Part shown: one piece after another, positions 2,957 through 59,042 of the stretch
Numbering within the stretch: the first letter of the stretch is position 1
Layout of the letters: each line of letters starts with the position of its first letter
Assembly (NCBI RefSeq): GCF_000332175.1
Contig: NZ_KB235914.1
Location: 4,247,793-4,311,792, forward strand
Origin: Pseudanabaena sp. PCC 6802
GTDB lineage: Bacteria > Cyanobacteriota > Cyanobacteriia > Pseudanabaenales > Pseudanabaenaceae
DNA length: 64,000 bases
Direction of reading: 5' to 3'
Position numbers and translations under genes: made by a program
Notes under the pieces: generated by a model
The model's input: only the letters and a program-made list of their open reading frames with translations
Told to the model about the DNA's origin: nothing
The model's database searches: none

Positions 2957-4588
2957 TTAGAAATGTTTTTTCTTATCTCTATGTTGTAGATTATCATCAA
3001 CTGATTCTATTGAGCGATCATAGCGATACCTTCGATACTCTGGAGATAATTTGTATTTAATAGTTCTAGGCTTATTGTCAGTATGAGAAATCTGCAAATA
3101 ACCTAACAATCGGAGAGTTTCTAAGACAAGATATAACTTTTCAAATTCTTCATCGGATGAATTCCAGAAACCCGCAATTTCTACTTCAGAGATACCAGCA
3201 TCAGAAGAGTGTTCTTCAAGAATTTTGAGAATTTCTTTTTGATTAGAGCCTAGCATTTCTTTTTGACTAAAATCGGGAGAACACAATAGCTTTTTACATT
3301 CCTTTGCCGCGTTAATTAACATACTTTGGGTAGACACTATACTAGTATCTGAGCTTTCTGAAGTCGGAAAGTTTTCCATTGGCAGGCTTGAACTTACATA
3401 TTCCTTCCATTCATCATTACTGATATCTCGCCAGACTTTTTGTTGAACCATTGCTGCAAGACTGTCGGCCTTAGCAATCCAAACTCGAATTTTTCCATCG
3501 TTACTTCCTGAAGCTAAGAACTGTCCATCTGGACTAAATGCAACAGAGGAAACAACATTTTCAGATTTGGGTTCAGCTTGAGTAGAAACTGTCAACAGAA
3601 TTGGCAAAACTGTAGGATTAGCACTCGCTTCACTAAGATTCCATAGCCAGATTCCTTCCGGTTGCGATGAGTTTTGTGTCTCAGGCCACCTTCCTATTGC
3701 AAGCATATTCCCATCCGGGCTATATGCAATGGAACTCCCCTTAAAGTTATGTCCGCCTAAAATAATAGGATCATTGATCTCGATGGATGCAGCTCCTTCA
3801 TCTTTGATTAAACCCCATAGACGCAATGTTTTGTCTTCACTAACAGAAGCCAACTGATACTCCACTTTATTGTTAGTTTGTGCCTCTGTATCTTTTTGCC
3901 CTTTCGGACTGAAGTTAACTGAAAAGACCTCACTCTGTTCATGTCCTCCCTTTAAGTCAATCACAGGATTTGACTGAGCAAGGTCGCTTGGACAGATCGC
4001 TCGTTTTGGCTTTTGTTTCCCATCTACTTTGCCTAATACTGAGAGGATTTGATTGATATCCCATAGACGAATTGTTTTCTGGTTTGATTTTCCATCTGTC
4101 CAAGAACCTGATACTAGATACTTACTATCAGGACTGAATGCCAATGTTCTGACTTCACTTTCAAAAAATCCCTCAAATTTTGAAAACAATTCCAAGGATG
4201 TAAGATCCCACAATATTAGAGTCTTATCCCAACTCCCGGAAGCTAGCCACTTCCCATCGCGGCTAAAAGCAATAGCCCTAACTTCACCATCATGACCTGG
4301 TAAGAATGTAGGGATTACTTGAAGCTGATTTAGATATTCTTCAGATTGATCGATACGATCTTGAAATTCTCTTAGGTACCACAGTCTGACTTTATTATCT
4401 TTATCGTAACCGCCAGAAGCCAGAATCCTGCCATCAGAACTGAACGCCAGAGGACTGTTACCATAACGTGCGTCCGGCAAAATCATTGGGGAAGACTGAG
4501 GCTTCGTCAAATCCCATAACCGCACAGTATCGTTTCTTTTACAATCCAAGCTTGTCCGATCCCAACCGCCGGAAGCCAGCCATTTCAT
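2957..4588 (-). CDS. C-terminal WD40 part of the split nSTAND1-WD40 protein
   Basis: This 543-residue frame starts in the middle of a WD40 repeat (MKWLASGGWDRT) and has no plausible ribosome binding site of its own. It continues the frame of the upstream nSTAND1 gene: 17 codons of open frame, encoding the first half of a blade (EAHDGYPVRAVAFSPD), lie between this ATG and the in-frame TAG at 4640-4642. It carries about six WD40 blades up to about residue 370, then the motif RDISNDEWKEYV, which resembles C-terminal tails of nSTAND1-WD40 proteins. A helical, winged-helix-like tail follows. On its own it is probably not functional. With the upstream part it would form the sensor beta-propellers of a STAND NTPase. 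Confidence 0.7.
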   Translation of the reverse strand: MKWLASGGWDRTSLDCKRNDTVRLWDLTKPQSSPMILPDARYGNSPLAFSSDGRILASGGYDKDNKVRLWYLREFQDRIDQSEEYLNQLQVIPTFLPGHDGEVRAIAFSRDGKWLASGSWDKTLILWDLTSLELFSKFEGFFESEVRTLAFSPDSKYLVSGSWTDGKSNQKTIRLWDINQILSVLGKVDGKQKPKRAICPSDLAQSNPVIDLKGGHEQSEVFSVNFSPKGQKDTEAQTNNKVEYQLASVSEDKTLRLWGLIKDEGAASIEINDPIILGGHNFKGSSIAYSPDGNMLAIGRWPETQNSSQPEGIWLWNLSEASANPTVLPILLTVSTQAEPKSENVVSSVAFSPDGQFLASGSNDGKIRVWIAKADSLAAMVQQKVWRDISNDEWKEYVSSSLPMENFPTSESSDTSIVSTQSMLINAAKECKKLLCSPDFSQKEMLGSNQKEILKILEEHSSDAGISEVEIAGFWNSSDEEFEKLYLVLETLRLLGYLQISHTDNKPRTIKYKLSPEYRRYRYDRSIESVDDNLQHRDKKKHF

Positions 4589-4639
4589 ATCTGGGCTGAA
4601 AGCAACTGCCCTAACGGGGTAACCATCATGTGCTTCCCA

Positions 4640-4642
4640 CTA
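4640..4642 (-). other. In-frame amber (TAG) stop splitting the nSTAND1-WD40 gene
   Basis: On the minus strand the codons read GAT TAC CTA TAG TGG GAA GCA. The frame before TAG (7000-4643) and after it (4639-2957) is the same, and both sides encode WD40 sequence that forms a complete blade when read through. The simplest explanation is a single C-to-T change of a CAG glutamine codon. No Pyl or Sec machinery or structured readthrough signal is evident here. Confidence 0.85.
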
Positions 4643-7000
4643 TAGGTAATCAGTCCGATCGTTTTTAACTTCCCATAGACGCACTGTCGTATCCTCACTC
4701 CCTGAAGCCAGAAAACTGTTATTACAATTAAAGGCTAAACAATTAATCTTCTTCTGGTGGCCGCGCAAAATTGCAGTAAGAGAAAGACGATCGCTTTCAA
4801 CTTGCCATAGTTGAATAGTTGCATCCTCACTCCCAATAGCCAAAAGCTTTCTATCTGAACTAACTGCAATTGCACTTATAGCGGATTGATTATGGGCGTT
4901 TCTCAAAGTAATTCCAGTCTCTAAGTCCTGCCACTGGATAATTCCATCTCTATAACCAGCAACTAGAATTCGGTTGTCTTGACTAAAAGCAATGGCCGAA
5001 ACTGCATAGTCGTTTCGATCCTGATCGATATCAAGCTGAGCAGTTTCATCAGTCCTGCTATTCACAATCTGTATGGTGACTTCGAATAGATATATTTTTA
5101 GCCCCCGAAGCTCTACTGCTACTGTATCTTGGTCGGGGTCGGATGCAGAAGTACAAATCTCTAGAGATTTACTTAGCAAGGTTTGATGTTCAGCACCAAG
5201 TTTGACATCATCACCCGAATCAGGCAAGAAGTTATTATAGGAATCTATCTTTAGATCACCATTCTGGATGGCAACAGATAGTATAATCGGTTGCTTTTTC
5301 TCTGATCCAGGGTCTTTAGGTGAAGAGTCAAATTGCCGTAAATTCCAATGCAAAATCTTATCCTCAATATCTGCTGCAATAAGTTGCTGCCCATCTGCAC
5401 TAAAGGCAACCGCCACAACTTCTCTCTGATGCCCTTCAAGGAGAGTACTAAAATATGGAATTCTCAATGCTTCACGAAGTGCTTGATCAACTCGACTAAG
5501 CATGGGTAAACTACTTTCCTCATTCCAAAAATAAGCTCGCAGGGCAAGCAGAGCACTTAGCTCATCATTAGCTCCATCATGTTCTTGAATGTGACCATCT
5601 TCTTGCGAGAGAGCATACGATTCTTTAGCCAAGGTAATAGCACGTTGAGCAATTGTTGAAATCCGAGATAGTTTAAACTTTTCCTGTTCTTTTTTATAAT
5701 CATTTAGCCAATTCAAAATTACTTTGGCATAGGCAGAAAACAGAATTTCGTATCGAGTACCACCAATTGGCCGCAAAATTCGAGATGGATCATCTTCATT
5801 AAGAGTGCCTAAAAGTTTTTGAAATTGATCCTTATCAAGTTTTCGGTGAGGAAGAAATTGATTGTCATTTGTATATTCAAATAAATCGCTAGCATTGTGA
5901 GAAATTGAAGTGCCAGATGGTGTAACCAGATGACGGAAAATAGAAGCTACAGTTCTTCGGTCGTTTTCCGTATCTAGTAATTTTAATCGTGTCTTAAGAT
6001 GCTGCTCGATAATCCCTTTTGTTCCATCTAGTTCATCTAAGGTCGCAATCCGCAATTTATGGGAGCCAGGTTCTTCTTGTTCCTTTTCCCATAGTTTCCT
6101 CATTACAAGCTGTAGATAAGCCGCTTCAATAGTCTTGCCATCATTATCATTAGCAATTTTCTCTACAATAGATTCACTGAATTTGTCTTCAATCTCAAAT
6201 TGCTGCTCAGATGATACTTTCTTGTTGTACCATTCGGTAATTGGTTTTTCTATGGCTTCGATCGCTTCACTTGCTGTTAATTGATCAAGAGAGATTCTAT
6301 TATCAAACCAACGAGATATTCTTCCCTTGAAAAAACGATCGGCTTTGGCTAGTAAATCTTCTCGAATTGAAACAAGGAACCTTACAGGCATTTCAGAATA
6401 ATCATAATCTTCAATTACACGAGTAAATCCATTAACAAATGTTTCTCTTGAATGTTGATCTTCTTGGCACGAGAAATAATCTTCAAATTGATCGAGAATT
6501 ATATAGAGTTCGCCACAGTTATCTCCCCCAAGGCACTTCGTCCATACCCGAAGGTACTCAACAAATGGAAACTTCAAATCTGGTGCTAAGATTTTAAGCG
6601 TTTTCTTTTCTTCGCTATTTTCCCAACCTTCACCCTCAATTGAAGGATCAATGCATTTAATGCCGTTGATTTGTTGGATATCCTTTTTAATTTGGCATTT
6701 CAATTTTTCTAGAGGGTTGTCAAACCAGTCTCTAAAAACAACAATACCAAATTTGGGGTTGCCATTCTGCAGATTGCGTTCTGCTTCCCGACGCAGTACA
6801 GAAGCAACACCAGCTCTAAGTAGGGAACTCTTTCCAACACCACTCACTCCATAAAATACTGTCAATGGGGAGTTCTGCAAGTTGAGCTTAACAAGTTTTT
6901 GAAGGTTTGTGCGTCCGAAAAATCGCTCTGAATCTAAATCTGTCTCAGAGTAAGGTATAGGTCCTTTATAGGGGTTTCCAATTGGATTGGCTAATATCAT
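4640..7000 (-). CDS. nSTAND1 NTPase with WD40 repeats, truncated by in-frame stop
   Basis: This 786-residue protein opens with the nSTAND1 signature: NPYKGPIPYSE and RFFGR, Walker A GVSGVGKSS at residues 51-59, and Walker B LYIILDQFED at about 165-174. IREDLL follows as the sensor-1-like strand. A helical STAND arm region follows to about residue 520, then WD40 blades starting at LEGHQREVVAVAFS. nSTAND1 proteins are signal-transducing ATPases that oligomerise when their propeller binds a ligand. The frame ends inside the WD40 array at a TAG; the missing blades continue in frame to 2957, giving 1347 codons in all. It lies 57 bp after the metallophosphatase-SIR2 gene. The NTPase core is intact, but the sensor array is cut. 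Confidence 0.88.
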   Translation of the reverse strand: MILANPIGNPYKGPIPYSETDLDSERFFGRTNLQKLVKLNLQNSPLTVFYGVSGVGKSSLLRAGVASVLRREAERNLQNGNPKFGIVVFRDWFDNPLEKLKCQIKKDIQQINGIKCIDPSIEGEGWENSEEKKTLKILAPDLKFPFVEYLRVWTKCLGGDNCGELYIILDQFEDYFSCQEDQHSRETFVNGFTRVIEDYDYSEMPVRFLVSIREDLLAKADRFFKGRISRWFDNRISLDQLTASEAIEAIEKPITEWYNKKVSSEQQFEIEDKFSESIVEKIANDNDGKTIEAAYLQLVMRKLWEKEQEEPGSHKLRIATLDELDGTKGIIEQHLKTRLKLLDTENDRRTVASIFRHLVTPSGTSISHNASDLFEYTNDNQFLPHRKLDKDQFQKLLGTLNEDDPSRILRPIGGTRYEILFSAYAKVILNWLNDYKKEQEKFKLSRISTIAQRAITLAKESYALSQEDGHIQEHDGANDELSALLALRAYFWNEESSLPMLSRVDQALREALRIPYFSTLLEGHQREVVAVAFSADGQQLIAADIEDKILHWNLRQFDSSPKDPGSEKKQPIILSVAIQNGDLKIDSYNNFLPDSGDDVKLGAEHQTLLSKSLEICTSASDPDQDTVAVELRGLKIYLFEVTIQIVNSRTDETAQLDIDQDRNDYAVSAIAFSQDNRILVAGYRDGIIQWQDLETGITLRNAHNQSAISAIAVSSDRKLLAIGSEDATIQLWQVESDRLSLTAILRGHQKKINCLAFNCNNSFLASGSEDTTVRLWEVKNDRTDYL

Positions 7001-7057: not shown

Positions 7058-8806
7058 TTAAAGAGAGTCAATTTGCTTAGTTAACTCATCAACGTAGGTT
7101 TTCAAAGAGATTTGCAAGGGTTCAATCCCTAAAGAGTTCCAAAATTTCTGATCGAGTTGATCAGGCGTAGATACCACCCTCTGAATTGACCAACAGTTTT
7201 TTAATTGTTGGTTCGGCCATAGGCGATGCAGAATAATTCTATGATTCCAGTCGCTTAGTCCAAAACCCAAAAATAAGAGATGATTCCTCTCTATATTAAT
7301 TTTGTCTTTTAAGCTAACGTGTAACAATCGATCAATGTTTCTTTCTACTAGGTATTCGATGAAATTATCCTCAGTAATCACTAATCCTTCGTTCTCATTC
7401 ATATGGTCGGTTGTACCGTAAAGCTTCAAAATTACAGGTCGCTCTTCAAATGATATTCCTAGAGAGAGATCATTTGGATCTGTAATCGGGGCAATTTCTC
7501 CATTCGGCTTCCTGTGCAAGAACTGGTCTTTCCCCTTCACTGAATTCATATAAAAAACTAGGTCATATTCTTGGTTCGCTCTTTTAAAGGCTACCTCTAA
7601 TGCAGTATCGTAATTGGTCGTTATTATCAAAGGATAAGGAAGAGTGAAACCTTTAGCCTTTAAGCTCTTTGGAAGATGGGCAAAGAAGTCGAGCACTGGA
7701 TTTGTCTGGTATTCAAAATCCTTTGATTCATTTGATTTATCAACATGAAAAATCTTCTCTAGTTCCTCCAGAAGCTTATTCGACCCGTCCGAAGTAAGAT
7801 TGGCATATTGTGATGAGGAGTGTAGGGGGCTTCTACCCACTATCATGTGTTTGGACTTGACTTTTGTATCCGACTCCATTCTGGGGCAATAAATATATGC
7901 GTTCTCATCTAGAAACTCATCTCTGAACCAGCATTCTTTTGGCGGTAATTCGTGTTCATCATTAACGCTACAAAGGGGGCATCTAAATTTCTTGCTTTTA
8001 TGGGGCAAGCCAAACTTTTGAATTAGATGCAAAGCCAATTCCCTACTTGTTGGAGGAAATTTAGAGTGAAGTTCCCAATCGATCACTTCATCATCATCTT
8101 GTCCTCCTCGACCATATAAGTTAACTTCTGAACCTAAAATTGCTACAAGTGCACCCTCTTTAATAGCTTTGACTACATCGTCATAATGCGATTCATCTGG
8201 GCAGCTTGAACTATTTTTAGGGGGAGGAGCAAATGGCTTTCTTAGCTTAAATGTGGCTGGGGAGGTATAAATACCTCCACTTAAATCGTTGTTGACATTA
8301 TCTGCTTCTAATCGAAATGCCCTGTTAGGAGATCCCGGCCTATATCTTGGCCAATGGATCATATTTCCCTCTTTTTCACCATTGTTGAACTCGATTTTGC
8401 TAGCAACGTAACCGTGTGAACGTTGAACTTCTTGATTTCCTTGATCCGTAAAACACGTCTCTAGTCCGAAGAGTGAAGGAGCCTGCATTGTACGTCTAAT
8501 CCAACCACTGCCTTGTTCAACCCCTGTATATCGAGTCTCATGCTCATGTCCGCACAGGTGTACTACAAAGTAGTTTGAAGTATGAATGAGGTTCTCTAAA
8601 TGGTCCTTAGAGCTGCTGTCTAACCAAATTGAAGGGTGATGGGTCATCAGTAAATTAGCATGGTGCTTTTCAACCCATTTATCTCCCTCACGTAAGCAGG
8701 CTGCATGAAATTGTCTAGAACTCAGACCAAGACGCTTATTATAGTTACCATTGTCGAGTTGGAGGAAGCTTGTATTGAGTCCTACTACTCCTAACTTAGA
8801 AGCCAT
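7058..8806 (-). CDS. Metallophosphatase C-terminus plus SIR2 domain (3' part of IS-split gene)
   Basis: This 582-residue frame is the downstream part of a gene cut by the IS at 8799-9672; its ATG is supplied by the IS end. Residues 5 to about 115 complete the calcineurin-like fold (LLMTHHP, LCGHEHE). A SIR2 domain follows: AILGSEVN at about 222, TTNYD at 396-400, ILKLYGTTDH near 460, and LGFGLSDWN at about 513. These match SIR2_2-type NAD-consuming effectors of bacterial defence proteins. Cysteines CPLC (277-280), C292 and C307 could bind zinc. Joined with 9673-10208 it gives a 757-residue protein. The SIR2 part might still be made by re-initiation inside the IS end, which would be risky for the cell; more likely it is silent. 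Confidence 0.82.
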   Translation of the reverse strand: MASKLGVVGLNTSFLQLDNGNYNKRLGLSSRQFHAACLREGDKWVEKHHANLLMTHHPSIWLDSSSKDHLENLIHTSNYFVVHLCGHEHETRYTGVEQGSGWIRRTMQAPSLFGLETCFTDQGNQEVQRSHGYVASKIEFNNGEKEGNMIHWPRYRPGSPNRAFRLEADNVNNDLSGGIYTSPATFKLRKPFAPPPKNSSSCPDESHYDDVVKAIKEGALVAILGSEVNLYGRGGQDDDEVIDWELHSKFPPTSRELALHLIQKFGLPHKSKKFRCPLCSVNDEHELPPKECWFRDEFLDENAYIYCPRMESDTKVKSKHMIVGRSPLHSSSQYANLTSDGSNKLLEELEKIFHVDKSNESKDFEYQTNPVLDFFAHLPKSLKAKGFTLPYPLIITTNYDTALEVAFKRANQEYDLVFYMNSVKGKDQFLHRKPNGEIAPITDPNDLSLGISFEERPVILKLYGTTDHMNENEGLVITEDNFIEYLVERNIDRLLHVSLKDKINIERNHLLFLGFGLSDWNHRIILHRLWPNQQLKNCWSIQRVVSTPDQLDQKFWNSLGIEPLQISLKTYVDELTKQIDSL

Positions 8807-9672
8807 TTAGGAAGTAAAAGGCGCACCAAAAGCAGGTATAAATACTGATGAAGTCTAGTATAAACCTGAAGAGATGCGCCGATCCTATAATACCGATTTA
8901 TCCAACCAAGAATGGGAAATTATCGCACCCATGCTACCCAAACCATCAAAATGGGGTAGGCCACCCAAAACAAATATGCGAGAGTTACTGAATGCCATTT
9001 TCTATATACTCAAAAATGGTTGTACATGGCAGAATCTACCCCATGACTTTCCGCCTTACTCAACGGTCTATTTCTACTGGCAAAGGTGGGAAAGAACTGG
9101 GCTACTGGAGGAGATTAATCGCAAATTGAGCCAACAATTTAGGGAAAAGGTTAGTAAAGAGGCGACCCCAAGCTTGGTGAGTATCGATAGCCAGAGTGTG
9201 AAGACAACAGAAAGTGCGGGCAGTCGAGGTTTTGATGGCGGTAAGCAAATCAAGGGCAGAAAACGCTTCGCTATGGTTGACACCTTGGGCTTAGTTGTAA
9301 AGGTGTTGGTGTGTGCAGCTAACATCGGTGAAAGAGCAGGAGCTAAGCAGTTGTTACAGAATCTCACATCTCCATTACCACGATTAGAGAAATTCTGGTT
9401 GATGCTGGATTCTCTGGTGATGAAATCACACAATGGGTCAACGACAACTTCGGATGGCTTTGGGAAGTTAGCAAACGGGCAGACAATCAGAAAGGTTTTG
9501 TAGTGGAGTCAAAGCGTTGGGTGGTAGAGCGAACCTTTGCTTGGTTAGGTAATTGTCGTAGACTAAGCAAGGATTATGAATTTTATGAGCAAATGTCTGA
9601 ATCGTTTATTTACTTGGCTTTAATCCGCAAAATGCTAAGAAATCTGGCAACTGCGACTTCCTAAATGGGTTC
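8799..9672 (+). mobile_element. IS5-family insertion sequence (874 bp) inside the MPE-SIR2 gene
   Basis: The element has 17-bp terminal inverted repeats, GAAGCCATTTAGGAAGT at 8799-8815 and ACTTCCTAAATGGGTTC at 9656-9672, which match at 16 of 17 positions. A direct TTA flanks it on both sides (8796-8798 and 9673-9675); a 3-bp TNA-type duplication is known for the ISL2 and IS1031 groups of IS5. The length and the transposase type fit. Removing the element plus one TTA rejoins the metallophosphatase-SIR2 frame exactly (GGA GCT AAG TTA GGA GTA). The near-perfect ends suggest a fairly recent insertion. Confidence 0.9.
8874..9664 (+). pseudogene. IS5-family transposase, frameshifted
   Basis: The first frame (8874-9503, 209 residues) has the IS5/IS4-type N-terminus (LSNQEWEIIAPMLP, GCTWQNLPHDFPPYSTVY) and the first catalytic Asp in VSIDSQSVK. 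Near 9390-9392 the homology moves to the -1 frame, which reads ILVDAGFSGDE, then VVERTFAWLGNCRRL with the catalytic Glu, and ends with TAA at 9662-9664. The junction is GAGAAATTC. A lost A in a short A run explains it best, since no good slippery heptamer is present. The DDE triad is therefore split over two frames, so this copy is probably inactive unless frameshifting occurs. Confidence 0.85.
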
Positions 9673-10208
9673 TTAGCTCCGTCTTTGTTTTCAATGGTTA
9701 CAGAGAAATCTCCTGGTAAAATACCATCACAGATATTCTTTGGTTTATATTCCTGCTCTTTCCACCAATCACTGTAGTTTTTAAAGGCTTCATTGATGAC
9801 TTCTCGGTAATCGGATGTTTTTTTAAGATCCCAAAAGTCATCCCATACTTCTTCATGTTGTGACCACTTTAGAAGGACAGCCACTGCCGGTGCCTTAGGA
9901 TTCTCAGGCCAAACCAAGTCATGATTTCCTGGAACTGCAAGCAGTTGGGGGGTGGTAGATTCAAGGTGTCCAAGCTTTGCGAATTCTTCCCACAGCTCAT
10001 TCAAAAATTCATCAACTTGCTTAAACTGCTCCTTGCTGCCAGAATGTGTCAGATCGCCAGTGAATAAAACTAAATTCCATGGGCCGCACTGTGTATACAA
10101 CTTTCCCACGTCTTCAAATATTACTTTTTTTATCCTGGACCAGGACTCTGCTTGTTCTGGCATTCCTCGATGTAGGTCTGAAAAGTGTAACCAACTGAAG
10201 CTTGTCAT
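9606..10208 (-). CDS. Metallophosphatase N-terminal part (5' part of IS-split MPE-SIR2 gene)
   Basis: The start at 10208 follows a strong Shine-Dalgarno (GGAGGGAG). Residues 1-179 are the first half of a calcineurin-like metallophosphatase: FSDLHRG (D11, H13), FTGDLTH (D52), and VPGNHD (N95, H96). After KDGAK (residue 179) the last 21 residues are encoded by the IS right end and stop at 9606. The remaining metal ligands lie in the downstream fragment (THHP, GHEH). In the intact 757-residue protein the phosphatase would precede SIR2. Such enzymes cleave phosphodiesters or nucleotides, so a role in signal processing or as a second effector is possible. As it stands the domain cannot be active. 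Confidence 0.85.
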   Translation of the reverse strand: MTSFSWLHFSDLHRGMPEQAESWSRIKKVIFEDVGKLYTQCGPWNLVLFTGDLTHSGSKEQFKQVDEFLNELWEEFAKLGHLESTTPQLLAVPGNHDLVWPENPKAPAVAVLLKWSQHEEVWDDFWDLKKTSDYREVINEAFKNYSDWWKEQEYKPKNICDGILPGDFSVTIENKDGAKNPFRKSQLPDFLAFCGLKPSK

Positions 10209-10347: not shown

Positions 10348-10656
10348 TCACGGTAAATAAACCGTCAACTCACTGACTTTTTCAACCAACGCGTAGCGAA
10401 TATACCGACTGATCGCCGAAATCTTTTAATCATTCACCACATACGTCCATCCCAGCACCAGGCTTACCCAGGGCAGCACCAACAGCGCATAGGGATTTCC
10501 CTTATCACCCAAGGCAAACACCAACACCGTACCAAATAAAGCCAGCGTCACGTACAGCAAGTTATCCCGAAAACCAATCCGTTGCACCTGTTCGTGCTTT
10601 AGCTTGTCATATTCTTGAAGGTACACATTCAGCGCCTGCACCTGTTCGTCTATCAT
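10348..10656 (-). pseudogene. Small two-TM protein cut by an in-frame TAA
   Basis: The frame starts at 10656 after AGGAGG and encodes 76 residues. These are a charged helix (EYDKLKHEQVQRIGFRDN), then two hydrophobic segments (about residues 29-46 and 54-72), ending WTYVVND at TAA (10426-10428). Past the TAA the same frame stays open and continues KISAISRYIR up to TGA at 10348-10350. From memory of similar cyanobacterial membrane proteins, the sequence after VVND is normally EKISAIGRYIR, so the TAA probably replaces a GAA. That comparison is inference. The remaining tail is short, so the 3' part may also be lost. It is the first gene of the operon and may have been its membrane partner. Confidence 0.6.
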
Positions 10657-11204
10657 AAAAACCTCCTACCACCGAAATTGAGTCAGGTTAAGACGATTGA
10701 AATACCAGCTTATTAATTCAGCTCGATCGCCGCCAGTAACTTCATCCAACGATCTCGCACGAGAACTTCCCACTTGCCCAGCTCAAACTCTTATTGCCAA
10801 GCACTCGGGCATCTACCTCACACCCTTCACCGACCAAATATCAATCCCGAAAACTGGGCTGCAAACACCTCCCGGCAAGGAAAAAAGTCGCTTGCTATTC
10901 CGATGCATTGCCTTAGGGGAATAAGTATAATCACTCTTTTTCACCACGTTTTAATTTTATGAAATCTATTTTGAAAAATATCAATAAGTCACAAATATTT
11001 ACTTCTCGTCGTTGGGGATCGCTAAAGCACCGGAGCGCCATTGCCCCTTTACCAGATCGGCGCAAACGAAAATTTCCCAGCCAAAAATAGATTCAATAAA
11101 ACTGTCCCGATTGAGAAGGGATTAACGTTCTTGCGGTATAGTTCGATCTCCGCCTCAGATCGATCCGCCAGGACAACTTTATTAAAGTCGCTAAAAAGAT
11201 GTTG
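10657..11204. other. Intergenic region with decayed coding remnants
   Basis: No intact gene is seen. Minus-strand frames contain short protein-like pieces separated by stops, for example WEVLVRDRWMKLLAAIELN near 10730-10790. The frame of the NB-ARC gene stays open for 51 codons past its TAG, to TAA at 11049-11051 (starting QHLFSDFNKVVLADRSEAE), without a start codon. This looks like gene debris at the border between the HIP1-free block and normal chromosome. No clear terminator or promoter was found. Confidence 0.4.
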
Positions 11205-14200
11205 CTAAGTTTCAATCGCACCTAAAGCTTTTAAAGCTTCCCTCTGAGACTCGGTTAATCCTGTCACGTCCGAGATATTCATGCCCTCATAGGGGCGCTT
11301 TGCTCTTAGCGTTCTCAAGCACTGACCTGTCCCAACGTCCCATAGCTTAATGGTTTCATCTTCGCTGCCCGTAGCTAGCGTTTTGCCATCCACACTCCAG
11401 GATACAGACCACACGATGCTGGTATGACCTTCTAAAGTACGCAGGCTCGCACCCGTTGCCGCATCCCACAATCGCACGGTCAGATCGAAACTACAAGAAG
11501 CGATCGCTGACCCATCAGGGCTAAATTGAGCAGACCAGATCCGATTCGCATGCCCCTGTAAAGTTAGCTCCGGTGCTCCCGTGCAAACTTGCCACAATCG
11601 GATCGTGCGATCTTCACCCGCAGATAGGAGTTTTTTGCCATCAGGACTAAAGCGAACGGACATCACCCGATCGGCGTGTCCGCTCAGGATGCTGAGCAGT
11701 TCTCCAGATCGCGCATCCCAGAGTCGCACGGTCGTGTCTTCGCTAGCCGAGGCAAGGACTTGTCCATCGGGACTAAAGGCCACAGACGTGACACCATTTT
11801 CATGGCCTGACAGGGTTTTGAGCAGTTGTCCAGTCTGTACGTTCCAGATTTTAATCGTGCGATCCTGACTGCAACTAGCCAGAATTGGCTCCACCATACT
11901 CCAACTGACAGAATAGACGCGATCGCTATGACCCTTTAGCGTCCGCAGGCTGCGACCAGTTTCCACATCCCAGAGTTTGACGGTGCGATCTCCGCTTGCC
12001 GAAGCAAGTATTTGCCCGCCTGGACTCCAGGCAACCGCCCAGATGCGATTGGTATGCCCCTCCAAGGTTTTCAGTTCCTGGCCGGCATTAGGATCCCAAA
12101 CGCGCACCAGATCGTCTTCACTACCACTTGCCAGCAATGGCCGCCAGTGCGTAGCTGCCATGACACTGCGCGGTTCAGGTTGCCAAGCGACAGACCAGAT
12201 TCCGTTAGCATAACCGCGCACGACCTTCAAGATCTGACCCGTTTGGGTGTTCCAGATGCGTACCATTTGATCTTCCCCTCCCGAAGCCAGCAATGGTTGA
12301 CTGGGACTCCAGTGCAATGACCAGACAATATTGGTATGCCCTTGCAAAATTTTCAGCGTTTGTCCAGTTTCGGGATCCCACAGCCGTACGGTGCGATCGC
12401 TACTCCCGCTAGCTAGAACTAGACCATCGGGACTCCACGCTACCGTACATACCCAGTCACCATGACCTTCCAACATCCGCACCGTATTTCCCGATCGCGC
12501 GTCCCACAATCGAATCGTTCGATCCTGACTGCCACTGGCAAGCGATCGTCCATCGGGACTGAACTTCACCGACCATACTCCCCCTGTATGTCCGGTATAG
12601 ATCCCGATCGCTTTACCTGTCTGCACGTCCCACAGGCGCACCGTACAATCGTCTCCACTGCTGACAAGGTGCTTGCCGTCGGGACTCCAATCGATACACC
12701 ACACCCCCCGTTCATGTCCTGCCAGAATGCGCGTGGTTTCTCCTGTTTGCCCGTGCCACAGTCGGATGGTGCAGTCCTCGCTACCCGTTGCCAACAGGTT
12801 GCCGTCGGGACTCCAGCTTGCAGACATCACCTGGTTTGTATGCCCCTGTAACGTTTTCAGGTGTTCGCCGGTTTGCCCGTGCCATAACTTGACCGTGGTG
12901 TCGATACTGGCACTAGCCAGCCTCTGACCATCTGGACTCCAGGCTACCTCCATTACCCGCCCTGTATGCCCGTAGGCCGTCCAAAGGATGCGATCTTGAA
13001 GTTGATCGTAGGATAAATCCGCACAGCGCACCTCTCCTTTACTATTCCCCGATGCAAAGTATTTACCGTTTGGACTGAAGACCAGCGATAACATCGATCC
13101 GAACGATCGCGTAAACCTGGTGCCGGAAAAATCCGACCCGCTAAAATTGACCTGTAGCAGTCGGCTCCCCGGTAAGTAGGCTTGCCAAATCGCAATGCCA
13201 GAAAAGTCATAGCCGGTGAGATCTAACTGTAATTGCAGACAGAGGTCTAACAGATTGCCACCTCCATAGCCCGCACGTTGGCTCGTCCGTAGCTCATGCA
13301 GAATGGCTGCCACCTGTCCTTCCACTGCGTTCAGAGAGGCAAAATTACTCAACAGCCTATCGGCTATTGGTTTTAAAATGCAGCGTACCTGACTTTCGCG
13401 AATGTAGTCTTTGGCCGTGCTTTGAATCAGGAAGTGACTTTGAAATAGAGATAACTGAACTCGGTCGGCAATCTCTCCACAAATCTTGTCAATCAGGCGA
13501 TCGCTTACATATTCCATCACCACGGGCTGCTGCGCGTATTTGCCCAAGCGCCGCTCGATTAAGCTGCGCCAGCATAAGGATTCTAGAGCTTCCAGGATCT
13601 TGGCAGGAGCCGTTGCGGGAATTAAGTCAGCTTGCAAAGCAGGCATATCCACCCATTCCCGATGGATTGCCAACCAGAACATGATGCTTTGCTCGAGATC
13701 GGTGAGGCGATCAAATTGACTGTCGAGCAAATGGCGCACGCCATTGAATACAACTGCCCCCTGCGCCAAAAAAGCAGAGGCATCGTTGCCAAATAGTTCC
13801 CGAATGGAGGCTGCAACTAGTTTTAGCGCTAGTGGATTGTTCCCATAATAGTCCCCCAATTGCGATAAATTAGCTGGGGTACCAGACAAGCCTCTTGTTT
13901 CTAAAAGGGCTAAGGAAACTTCGGCGGAACCCTGGAGTTGCAGCGATCGCACTTTTGCCTGTGGGTCTTCTAGCAATGCCAGAGTTGCTAGCTTCTCGCG
14001 ACTGGTAACGATCAGACAGCTTTGATGGTTCGTTTCAGCGATCGTCTGAAATAGTTCGTCGTAGTCTTCGTAACCATCCCGATATTGGCCTACCGTACCG
14101 ACTTGCAAGATCGTTTCTAGATTATCCAACACGATCGCGCAACGGGCATTCCGCAAGCAAACCATCAAGTCTTTCAAACTCCCTTCAGTCTGGGCGCGGT

Positions 14201-14741
14201 TGGAAAGGAACGTTACCAATTCGTCGATTAATGTTGACAGGGGAGGCGCATTGCGAAGCGATCGCCAGATCGCATAGTCAAAATCACCAGCCACCTGATG
14301 GGCTAATTTCACAGCCAGGGCAGTCTTGCCGATGCCTCCCATACCCAAAATTGCCACCCAACGACATTTTTCCCCAACAATCCATTCCTCTAATTGAGCG
14401 AGTTCCGCCAACCTGCCATAAAAAACCGAGACATCGACCGCTTCTCCCCAATCTGTCCTGGTCGCACGCCCCCCAGATGCTGCGGATTGTCGCTTCAAGC
14501 TTTGGAGGAGCATGAAGCGAAAGTTGCGCTTATTTACCTTTTCTCCCAAAGCCTCGGAGAGCGATCGCCACAACTGAGACCCTATACTTTTGACATAATC
14601 CGGGTCATATCCCAGCATATCGGCAATTTCTGGATAATCTTTCCCTTCCCAGGCTGCCCGAAACACCTGGACTCTAACGGTACTCAAAGCCCCTTCTGGG
14701 AGAATCTGCTGTAACAGACCCAGAGCTTGTTCTAGTTCCAT
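11205..14741 (-). CDS. NB-ARC STAND protein with 14 WD40 blades
   Basis: This is a 1178-residue soluble protein. Residues 1-75 form a helical HTH-like region ([27 protein letters not shown]) of the kind found at the N-terminus of cyanobacterial NB-ARC and vWA-MoxR-associated proteins. The NB-ARC NTPase follows: FYGR at about 107, Walker A GMGGIGKT at 133-140, Walker [10 protein letters not shown] at about 201, LIVTSREK, and GNNPLAL. From about residue 545 there are 14 WD40 repeats by my count, enough for two seven-bladed propellers. The blades are very alike (GHxxxVWSVxWSPDGxxLASGSxDxTVRLWD), so recombination or slippage is likely during evolution. It starts 9 bp after a small gene and is intact. 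STAND proteins of this form detect ligands; the target is unknown. Confidence 0.93.
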
Positions 14742-57857: not shown

Positions 57858-59042
57858 ATGGAAAAAGCTTTCAAGTACCGATTCTATCCAACTCCTGAGC
57901 AAGAAACCTTGCTGAGAAAGACGATGGGATGCACTCGACTCGTCTATAACTGCGCCCTCGCCGCCAGGACTGAAGCATGGTACAAAAGACAGGAACGGGT
58001 CGGGTATATTGAAACTTCTGCCATGCTGACTCAATGGAAAAAGCAAGAAGACTTGCAATTTCTTAATGAGGTTAGCTGTGTACCATTGCAACAGGGTTTG
58101 AGACACCTCCAAACAGCCTTTAGTAACTTTTTTGCAGGAAGGGCAAAATACCCCAACTTCAAGAAAAAGCATCAAGGTGGTAGTGCTGAATTTACTAAAT
58201 CTGCTTTCAGATGGAAAGATGGCAAAGTATTTCTGGCTAAAAGCTCTGAACCGCTTGCTATCCGTTGGAGTCGTCAACTGCCTAAAGGCGCAGAACCTTC
58301 TACCATTACGGTAAAGCTTTCGCCCTCTGGACGATGGACGGTTTCCCTGTTGGTGAATGTCGAGATCGAACCATTGCCTAAGTCTGCTCATCAGATTGGG
58401 ATTGATTTGGGGATAACAAGTTTGGTCGCCTTGAGTAATGGCGAAAAAGTTGCTAATCCCAAAGGATTTGCTGCTAAACGTATCAAACTGCGTAAAGCAC
58501 AAAAAGCTTTGAGTCGTAAGCAGAAAGGGTCTAATAACCGACAGAAAGCTCGCCTCAAGGTAGCAAAAGTGCATCAAGAAATTAGCGATGCCCGTAAAGA
58601 TTTTCTTCATAAGCTGACAACTCAATTGGTGCGTGAGAACCAAACCATTGCAATTGAGGATCTCGCTGTGAAGAATATGGTCAAGAATCGGCAACTTGCC
58701 CTTGCGATCGGTGATGCTAGTTGGGGTGAATTGGTCAGACAACTTGAATATAAATCCGACTGGTATGGTCGGACTCTTGTTAAGATTGACCGTTGGTTTC
58801 CGAGTTCTAAGCGTTGTGGGCATTGTGGTTACATCGTTGATAAGTTGCCGTTAAATATCAGAGAGTGGGATTGCCCTCAGTGCGGTACACATCACGATCG
58901 CGATCTCAATGCTGCTAACAATATTCTTGCCGCAGGGCTTGCGGTTAAAGTCTGTGGAGCGAACATAAGACCTGATAGGCATAAGTCTAAAGGGCAGTTG
59001 CGAAACCCCAGTAATGGGAAGAAACAGAAACCTAAGTCGTGA
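57858..59042 (+). CDS. tnpB: TnpB RNA-guided nuclease
   Basis: This 394-residue protein has an intact RuvC site: D183 (GIDLGI), E267 (AIEDLAV) and D349 (HHDRDLNAANN). The zinc ribbon C320, C323, C339, C342 is complete. The N-terminal start MEKAFKYRFYPTPEQ is standard. TnpB cleaves DNA guided by an omega RNA made from the right end of its element, favouring retention of the element. The protein looks functional. Confidence 0.95.
   Translation: MEKAFKYRFYPTPEQETLLRKTMGCTRLVYNCALAARTEAWYKRQERVGYIETSAMLTQWKKQEDLQFLNEVSCVPLQQGLRHLQTAFSNFFAGRAKYPNFKKKHQGGSAEFTKSAFRWKDGKVFLAKSSEPLAIRWSRQLPKGAEPSTITVKLSPSGRWTVSLLVNVEIEPLPKSAHQIGIDLGITSLVALSNGEKVANPKGFAAKRIKLRKAQKALSRKQKGSNNRQKARLKVAKVHQEISDARKDFLHKLTTQLVRENQTIAIEDLAVKNMVKNRQLALAIGDASWGELVRQLEYKSDWYGRTLVKIDRWFPSSKRCGHCGYIVDKLPLNIREWDCPQCGTHHDRDLNAANNILAAGLAVKVCGANIRPDRHKSKGQLRNPSNGKKQKPKS

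What the first reader, a model, noticed from the sequence alone, without database searches (positions are those of the whole stretch)
2957..7000. In-frame TAG inside a 1347-codon nSTAND1-WD40 gene
The frame is the same on both sides of TAG 4640-4642, and the codons after it complete a WD40 blade. It is either a fresh nonsense mutation (CAG to TAG), a readthrough point or a sequence error. Together with the IS in the neighbouring gene it means sensor and effector are both hit, which suggests relaxed or negative selection on the system.
Basis: seen in the sequence. Interest (0 to 1): 0.65.

Follow-up and report, generated by a model that had tools for sequence, protein, structure and literature searches.

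The report
Nonsense-broken sensor in decaying defence operon
In this cyanobacterium an immune-receptor-like gene is cut short by a premature stop, and the two genes next to it in the same putative defence operon are broken too, so the finding is real but most likely ordinary gene decay.

Summary
The minus-strand gene 7000→2957 is one 1347-codon frame with a single internal TAG at 4640-4642 (codon 787); coding signature and WD40 repeats continue across it. Relatives with WD40 repeats run on to 764-1639 aa.

The gene belongs to a conserved pair: SIR2 genes accompany 77 of 80 relatives. The window's SIR2 partner, a metallophosphoesterase-SIR2 gene, is split by an IS5-type element (8799-9672, TTA duplication). 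A third operon gene, a small membrane protein, has an in-frame TAA (10426-10428) and has lost its 3' half.

With all three genes broken, nonsense pseudogenisation of a decaying conflict system is the best reading (0.82). The sensor lesion looks recent: no second stop or frameshift. TAG recoding is unlikely, since TAG ends 14 of 30 window genes. Sequence error cannot be excluded without reads. One other relative (L087, a Chloroflexota MAG) also has a TAG between WD40 blades; I take it as independent decay. No receptor relative above about 45% identity was found, so selection could not be measured.

The parts
2957..7000 (-). nSTAND1-WD40 receptor gene, 1347 codons plus final TAA, interrupted (pseudogene)
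4640..4642 (-). in-frame TAG, codon 787
5906..6973 (-). nSTAND1 NTPase domain (residues 10-365; GVSGVGKSS, ILDQFED)
4643..5455 (-). WD40 region before the stop (residues 516-786)
3461..4639 (-). WD40 region after the stop (residues 788 to about 1180)
2960..3460 (-). C-terminal, mostly helical region after the WD40 repeats
7058..8806 (-). ORF holding the 3' part of the metallophosphoesterase-SIR2 effector gene (HHP and GHEH motifs, SIR2_2 domain)
8799..9672 (+). IS5-family element (DUF4096/DDE transposase) with a 1-nt deletion relative to the other copies compared
8796..8798 (.). target duplication TTA, left
9673..9675 (.). target duplication TTA, right
9676..10208 (-). 5' part of the effector gene (DLH, TGD, GNHD motifs of the phosphoesterase)
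10366..10656 (-). remnant (97 of about 189 codons) of a small membrane-protein gene, 80% identical to L062:3306-3872
10426..10428 (-). in-frame TAA in that remnant (codon 77)
11041..11097 (-). small remnant of a second copy of the membrane-protein gene (IESIFGWEI + FVCADLVKGQ)

Best explanation
The TAG is a nonsense mutation in the receptor gene of a small conflict (probably anti-phage) operon that is decaying as a whole. An intact version would work like a split bacterial NLR: WD40 propellers sense an invader cue, the nSTAND1 NTPase is an ATP-driven oligomerisation switch, and the protein encoded just upstream (metallophosphoesterase fused to SIR2) is the effector. Shown: gene order, domains, lesions, conservation of the pair. 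Inferred: sensing, oligomerisation, anti-phage role. Here the 786-residue product would end with a propeller unclosed, the phosphoesterase motifs are divided between two ORFs by an IS, and the small membrane partner is truncated.
For: One frame on both sides of the TAG. Of 67 closed homologues, 28 have six or more WD motifs and are 764-1639 aa long. SIR2 matches in 77 of 80 loci. Single-ORF metallophosphoesterase-SIR2 relatives exist (L046/L073, L082, L090), so the two window fragments are one gene split by an IS with a TTA duplication. The membrane gene has a TAA and 3' loss while eight loci hold uninterrupted copies. The pair is single-copy in the genome, and 36 of 37 other genomes of the family lack the SIR2 partner, as expected of an acquired, dispensable system. 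No second stop in the gene: above about 0.016-0.018 neutral substitutions per site three or more further stops would be expected.
Against: No reads and no close relative are available, so a substitution error at 4640-4642 is not excluded. The IS copy 4.7 kb away has a 1-nt A-run deletion not seen in the 11 other copies compared, which may be mutation or local assembly error. Only one lesion is seen in the sensor itself.
Confidence: 0.82

Rival explanations
1. The TAG is a sequencing or assembly error and the sensor gene is intact.
For: A single substitution with an otherwise perfect frame; the IS copy nearby has a 1-nt homopolymer difference from the other copies compared.
Against: The 11 other IS copies compared agree with the window copy at every base except that one, so substitution errors seem rare, although repeats may have been polished together. 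The IS insertion and the loss of the membrane gene's 3' half are lesions that base errors do not explain.
Confidence: 0.1
2. The 786-residue product is a functional short receptor; the truncation is tolerated or adaptive.
For: A natural 764-aa relative with nSTAND1 and a short run of WD40 repeats exists (L076), and the 786-residue product keeps the whole NTPase domain.
Against: Before the stop there are about four recognisable repeats plus degenerate sequence; in the low-confidence model the stop falls inside a blade. The 560 downstream codons keep their coding signature. The effector gene is broken as well.
Confidence: 0.05
3. Programmed TAG readthrough or recoding makes both a short and a long receptor.
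For: A second relative (L087, Chloroflexota MAG, codon 838 of 1332) also has an in-frame TAG between WD40 blades.
Against: TAG ends 14 of 30 window genes, so it is a normal stop. The two contexts (TAG-TGG and TAG-CGT) are unlike. No other of 67 closed relatives shows it. The effector is cut anyway.
Confidence: 0.02

Closest known systems
nSTAND1-containing conflict systems (PMC8195603)
   Same: nSTAND1 NTPase (PF20703) as central switch with exchangeable effector domains, calcineurin-type and NAD-targeting ones among them
   Different: Here the effector is a separate upstream gene with a SIR2 core, in some cyanobacteria preceded by a small membrane protein; this pairing was not described in the passages read
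Avs5 / AVAST type 5 (PMC12931631)
   Same: SIR2 (PF13289) effector, STAND NTPase and C-terminal repeat sensor; altered HG motif in some members (NG there, YG here)
   Different: Avs5 is one polypeptide with nSTAND3; this is two genes with nSTAND1 and WD40 repeats
APAF-1-like STAND-WD40 proteins (general knowledge; PMC7159879)
   Same: STAND NTPase followed by WD40 propellers that act as the sensor
   Different: The partner is a metallophosphoesterase-SIR2 protein, not a caspase
Highly repetitive WD40 propeller protein, PDB 2ymu
   Same: Long run of WD40 repeats; aligned over model residues 21-696, 32% identity over 397 residues
   Different: rmsd 13 on a low-confidence model, so only a general likeness

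Membership tests
nSTAND1 NTPase (PF20703) | profile score above the curated cut-off | tested here: met
   117 bits against 27.1
nSTAND1 NTPase (PF20703) | P-loop and Walker-B-like motif | tested here: met
   GVSGVGKSS and ILDQFED, conserved in relatives
WD40 repeat protein | multiple WD40 repeats | tested here: met
   PF00400 98 bits before and 179 bits after the stop
Pseudogene | internal stop with homologous coding sequence continuing in frame | tested here: met
Pseudogene | loss of purifying selection (dN/dS near 1) | not testable with these tools
   no receptor relative above about 45% identity found
Avs5 | SIR2 and STAND NTPase in one polypeptide | tested here: not met
   separate ORFs
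Avs5 | nSTAND3 domain | tested here: inconclusive
   best NTPase match is nSTAND1; nSTAND3 is not among the 25 of 54 families shown
SIR2 NADase effector | TTNxD motif | tested here: met
   TTNYD
SIR2 NADase effector | HG motif | tested here: not met
   YG here; PMC12931631 reports an active NG variant, so activity stays open
IS5-family element | DUF4096/DDE transposase, terminal inverted repeats, 3-bp TNA duplication | tested here: met
Anti-phage defence system | protection against phage | not testable with these tools
   needs an experiment; PADLOC gives only weak or partial hits

The most novel reading that the evidence does not exclude
The intact relatives are an uncharacterised split-NLR conflict system: an nSTAND1 receptor with a swappable sensor (often WD40) and, beside it, a SIR2-core protein to which a second domain (phosphoesterase, CHAT, nucleoside phosphorylase type, cyclase or TIR) is often fused and whose HG motif is then often altered, sometimes with a small membrane partner. 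The window holds a recently broken copy.
Probability: 0.4. Interest if true: 0.5.

Novelty: new member of a known kind. Interest (0 to 1): 0.27.

Why it matters
As a stop codon in one gene it is ordinary decay. It is a clear snapshot of a whole conflict operon being lost through several kinds of lesion, and it led to a widespread SIR2/nSTAND1 gene pair (77 of 80 relatives, several phyla) that is not covered by the PADLOC and NCBIfam models tested and could be tried as a defence system.

Tried and rejected
Search for close orthologues: 58 related genomes gave only WD40 matches; the nSTAND1 part in 386 genomes of the phylum gave three strong relatives; a single-sequence scan of genome contigs gave none; plasmids gave only distant hits. 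TAG recoding: rejected on stop usage. Recurrent programmed TAG: one further case only (L087), and a sample of 400 genomes of its phylum added no other. Other long in-frame runs after the stops of relatives (L114, L138, L101, L079, L131 and others) were read and show no WD40 continuation. The idea that SIR2 lost its HG motif because a second enzyme was fused: 35 of 52 fused against 0 of 21 unfused had lost the N/H pair, but there are only five changes on the tree and independent pairs were not significant, so it is kept as an observation only. The flanks of the IS were not joined; each part was compared with relatives separately. Paper searches found no description of this exact gene pair, which is weak evidence.

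Full report
Observation. The minus-strand stretch 7000→2957 reads as one frame of 1348 codons with stops only at codon 787 (TAG, 4642-4640) and at the end. The other frames carry 56-156 stops. Codon log-odds are positive only in the gene frame along the gene, with no change at the stop. Pfam finds nSTAND1 at residues 10-365 and WD40 repeats on both sides of the stop. The finding is real and far beyond chance.

Homologues. Close relatives are missing. The nSTAND1 part has only three strong matches in 386 genomes of the phylum, about 36-42% identical over the first NTPase stretch in two of them and 27% over a longer alignment in the third. A profile scan of 84,980 genomes gave 80 kept loci at 45% identity or less. 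In 63 of these an adjacent upstream ORF matches the SIR2 profile by a strict distance rule, and SIR2 matches are listed for 77 of the 80 loci. The pair occurs in Cyanobacteriota, Chloroflexota, Pseudomonadota, Acidobacteriota, Actinomycetota and others. Among 67 closed receptor ORFs, 28 have six or more WD motifs, with lengths 764-1639 aa. Three of the 67 look broken: L087 by an in-frame TAG, L066 by a frame change, and L062, which ends early close to its contig end.

The effector. ORF 7058-8806 (SIR2_2) and ORF 9606-10208 (Metallophos) hold two parts of one gene: relatives L046/L073, L082 and L090 have both domains in one ORF. Between them lies an IS5-type element, 8799-9672, flanked by TTA. 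The genome has about 20 further full-length copies. The window copy lacks one A relative to the 11 others compared, which frameshifts its transposase. The phosphoesterase motifs DLH, TGD and GNHD lie in the 5' piece and HHP and GHEH in the 3' piece, so no single chain can hold the active site.

The third gene. 10656→10366 is 80% identical to the first 97 residues of a 189-residue, apparently membrane-spanning protein (L062:3306-3872). Its relatives lie upstream of the SIR2 gene in L062, L102, L074, L103, L104, L086, L085 and L106. The window copy has a TAA at codon 77 and no 3' half. A small remnant of another copy lies at 11041-11097. A relative in another genome of the family (G023) is uninterrupted, but that genome has no SIR2 match, so this gene is not exclusive to the system.

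Where the stop falls. An AlphaFold2 model of residues 480-1347, with the stop read as a residue, has mean pLDDT 65.5 and is used only loosely. It shows a long series of four-stranded blades, and the stop falls in the outer strand of one. Structural matches place a propeller at model residues 185-535, that is protein residues 664-1014, so the truncated product would not close it. A 764-aa relative with a shorter WD40 run exists (L076), so function of the truncated product is kept as a rival.

Age. The gene offers about 170-198 expected stops per unit of substitutions per site. With none beyond the TAG, neutral divergence since loss of constraint is probably under about 0.016-0.018. This assumes neutrality and a simple substitution model. 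The order of the lesions is not known.

Mechanism. From the domains, the intact system should act like an NLR: WD40 sensing, nSTAND1 switching, effector activation. None of this was tested. The SIR2 here keeps TTNYD but has YG in place of HG. Loss of the N/H pair is seen only in proteins with an added domain (35 of 52 against 0 of 21), but it follows the phylogeny, with five changes on the tree, and PMC12931631 reports an active NG variant. Whether this SIR2 is catalytic is left open.

Known context. nSTAND1 was named in PMC8195603 with exchangeable effectors; Avs5 (PMC12931631) is the closest characterised SIR2-STAND defence but is one polypeptide with nSTAND3. PADLOC and NCBIfam give only weak or partial hits.

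Verdict. Nonsense pseudogenisation within a decaying conflict operon (0.82), with sequence error as the main rival (0.10).

Noticed in passing
window 10366-10656 and 11041-11097 (-): Broken remnants of a conserved small membrane-protein gene whose relatives lie upstream of SIR2 genes in eight cyanobacterial loci.
   Followed up: partly
L087:3535-7530 (+): A Chloroflexota relative has an in-frame TAG (codon 838 of 1332) between WD40 blades, with WD40 repeats continuing in frame.
   Followed up: partly
window 8799-9672 (+): IS copy with a 1-nt deletion in an A-run that frameshifts its transposase; the 11 other copies compared lack it, and the genome holds about 20 further copies.
   Followed up: yes
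73 SIR2 proteins beside nSTAND1 genes (alignment A4; window copy 7061-8803): The SIR2 HG motif is replaced by YG, FG or others only in proteins with an added domain; the changes are not independent on the tree.
   Followed up: partly
window 11205-14741 (-): A separate 1178-residue protein with many WD40 repeats lies just upstream of the operon.
   Followed up: no
L146:1636-6468 (-), same genome: Another nSTAND1 gene of the same genome, 1610 aa and uninterrupted, only weakly like this family.
   Followed up: no
window 57858-59039 (+): IS605 OrfB/TnpB-type transposase gene.
   Followed up: no
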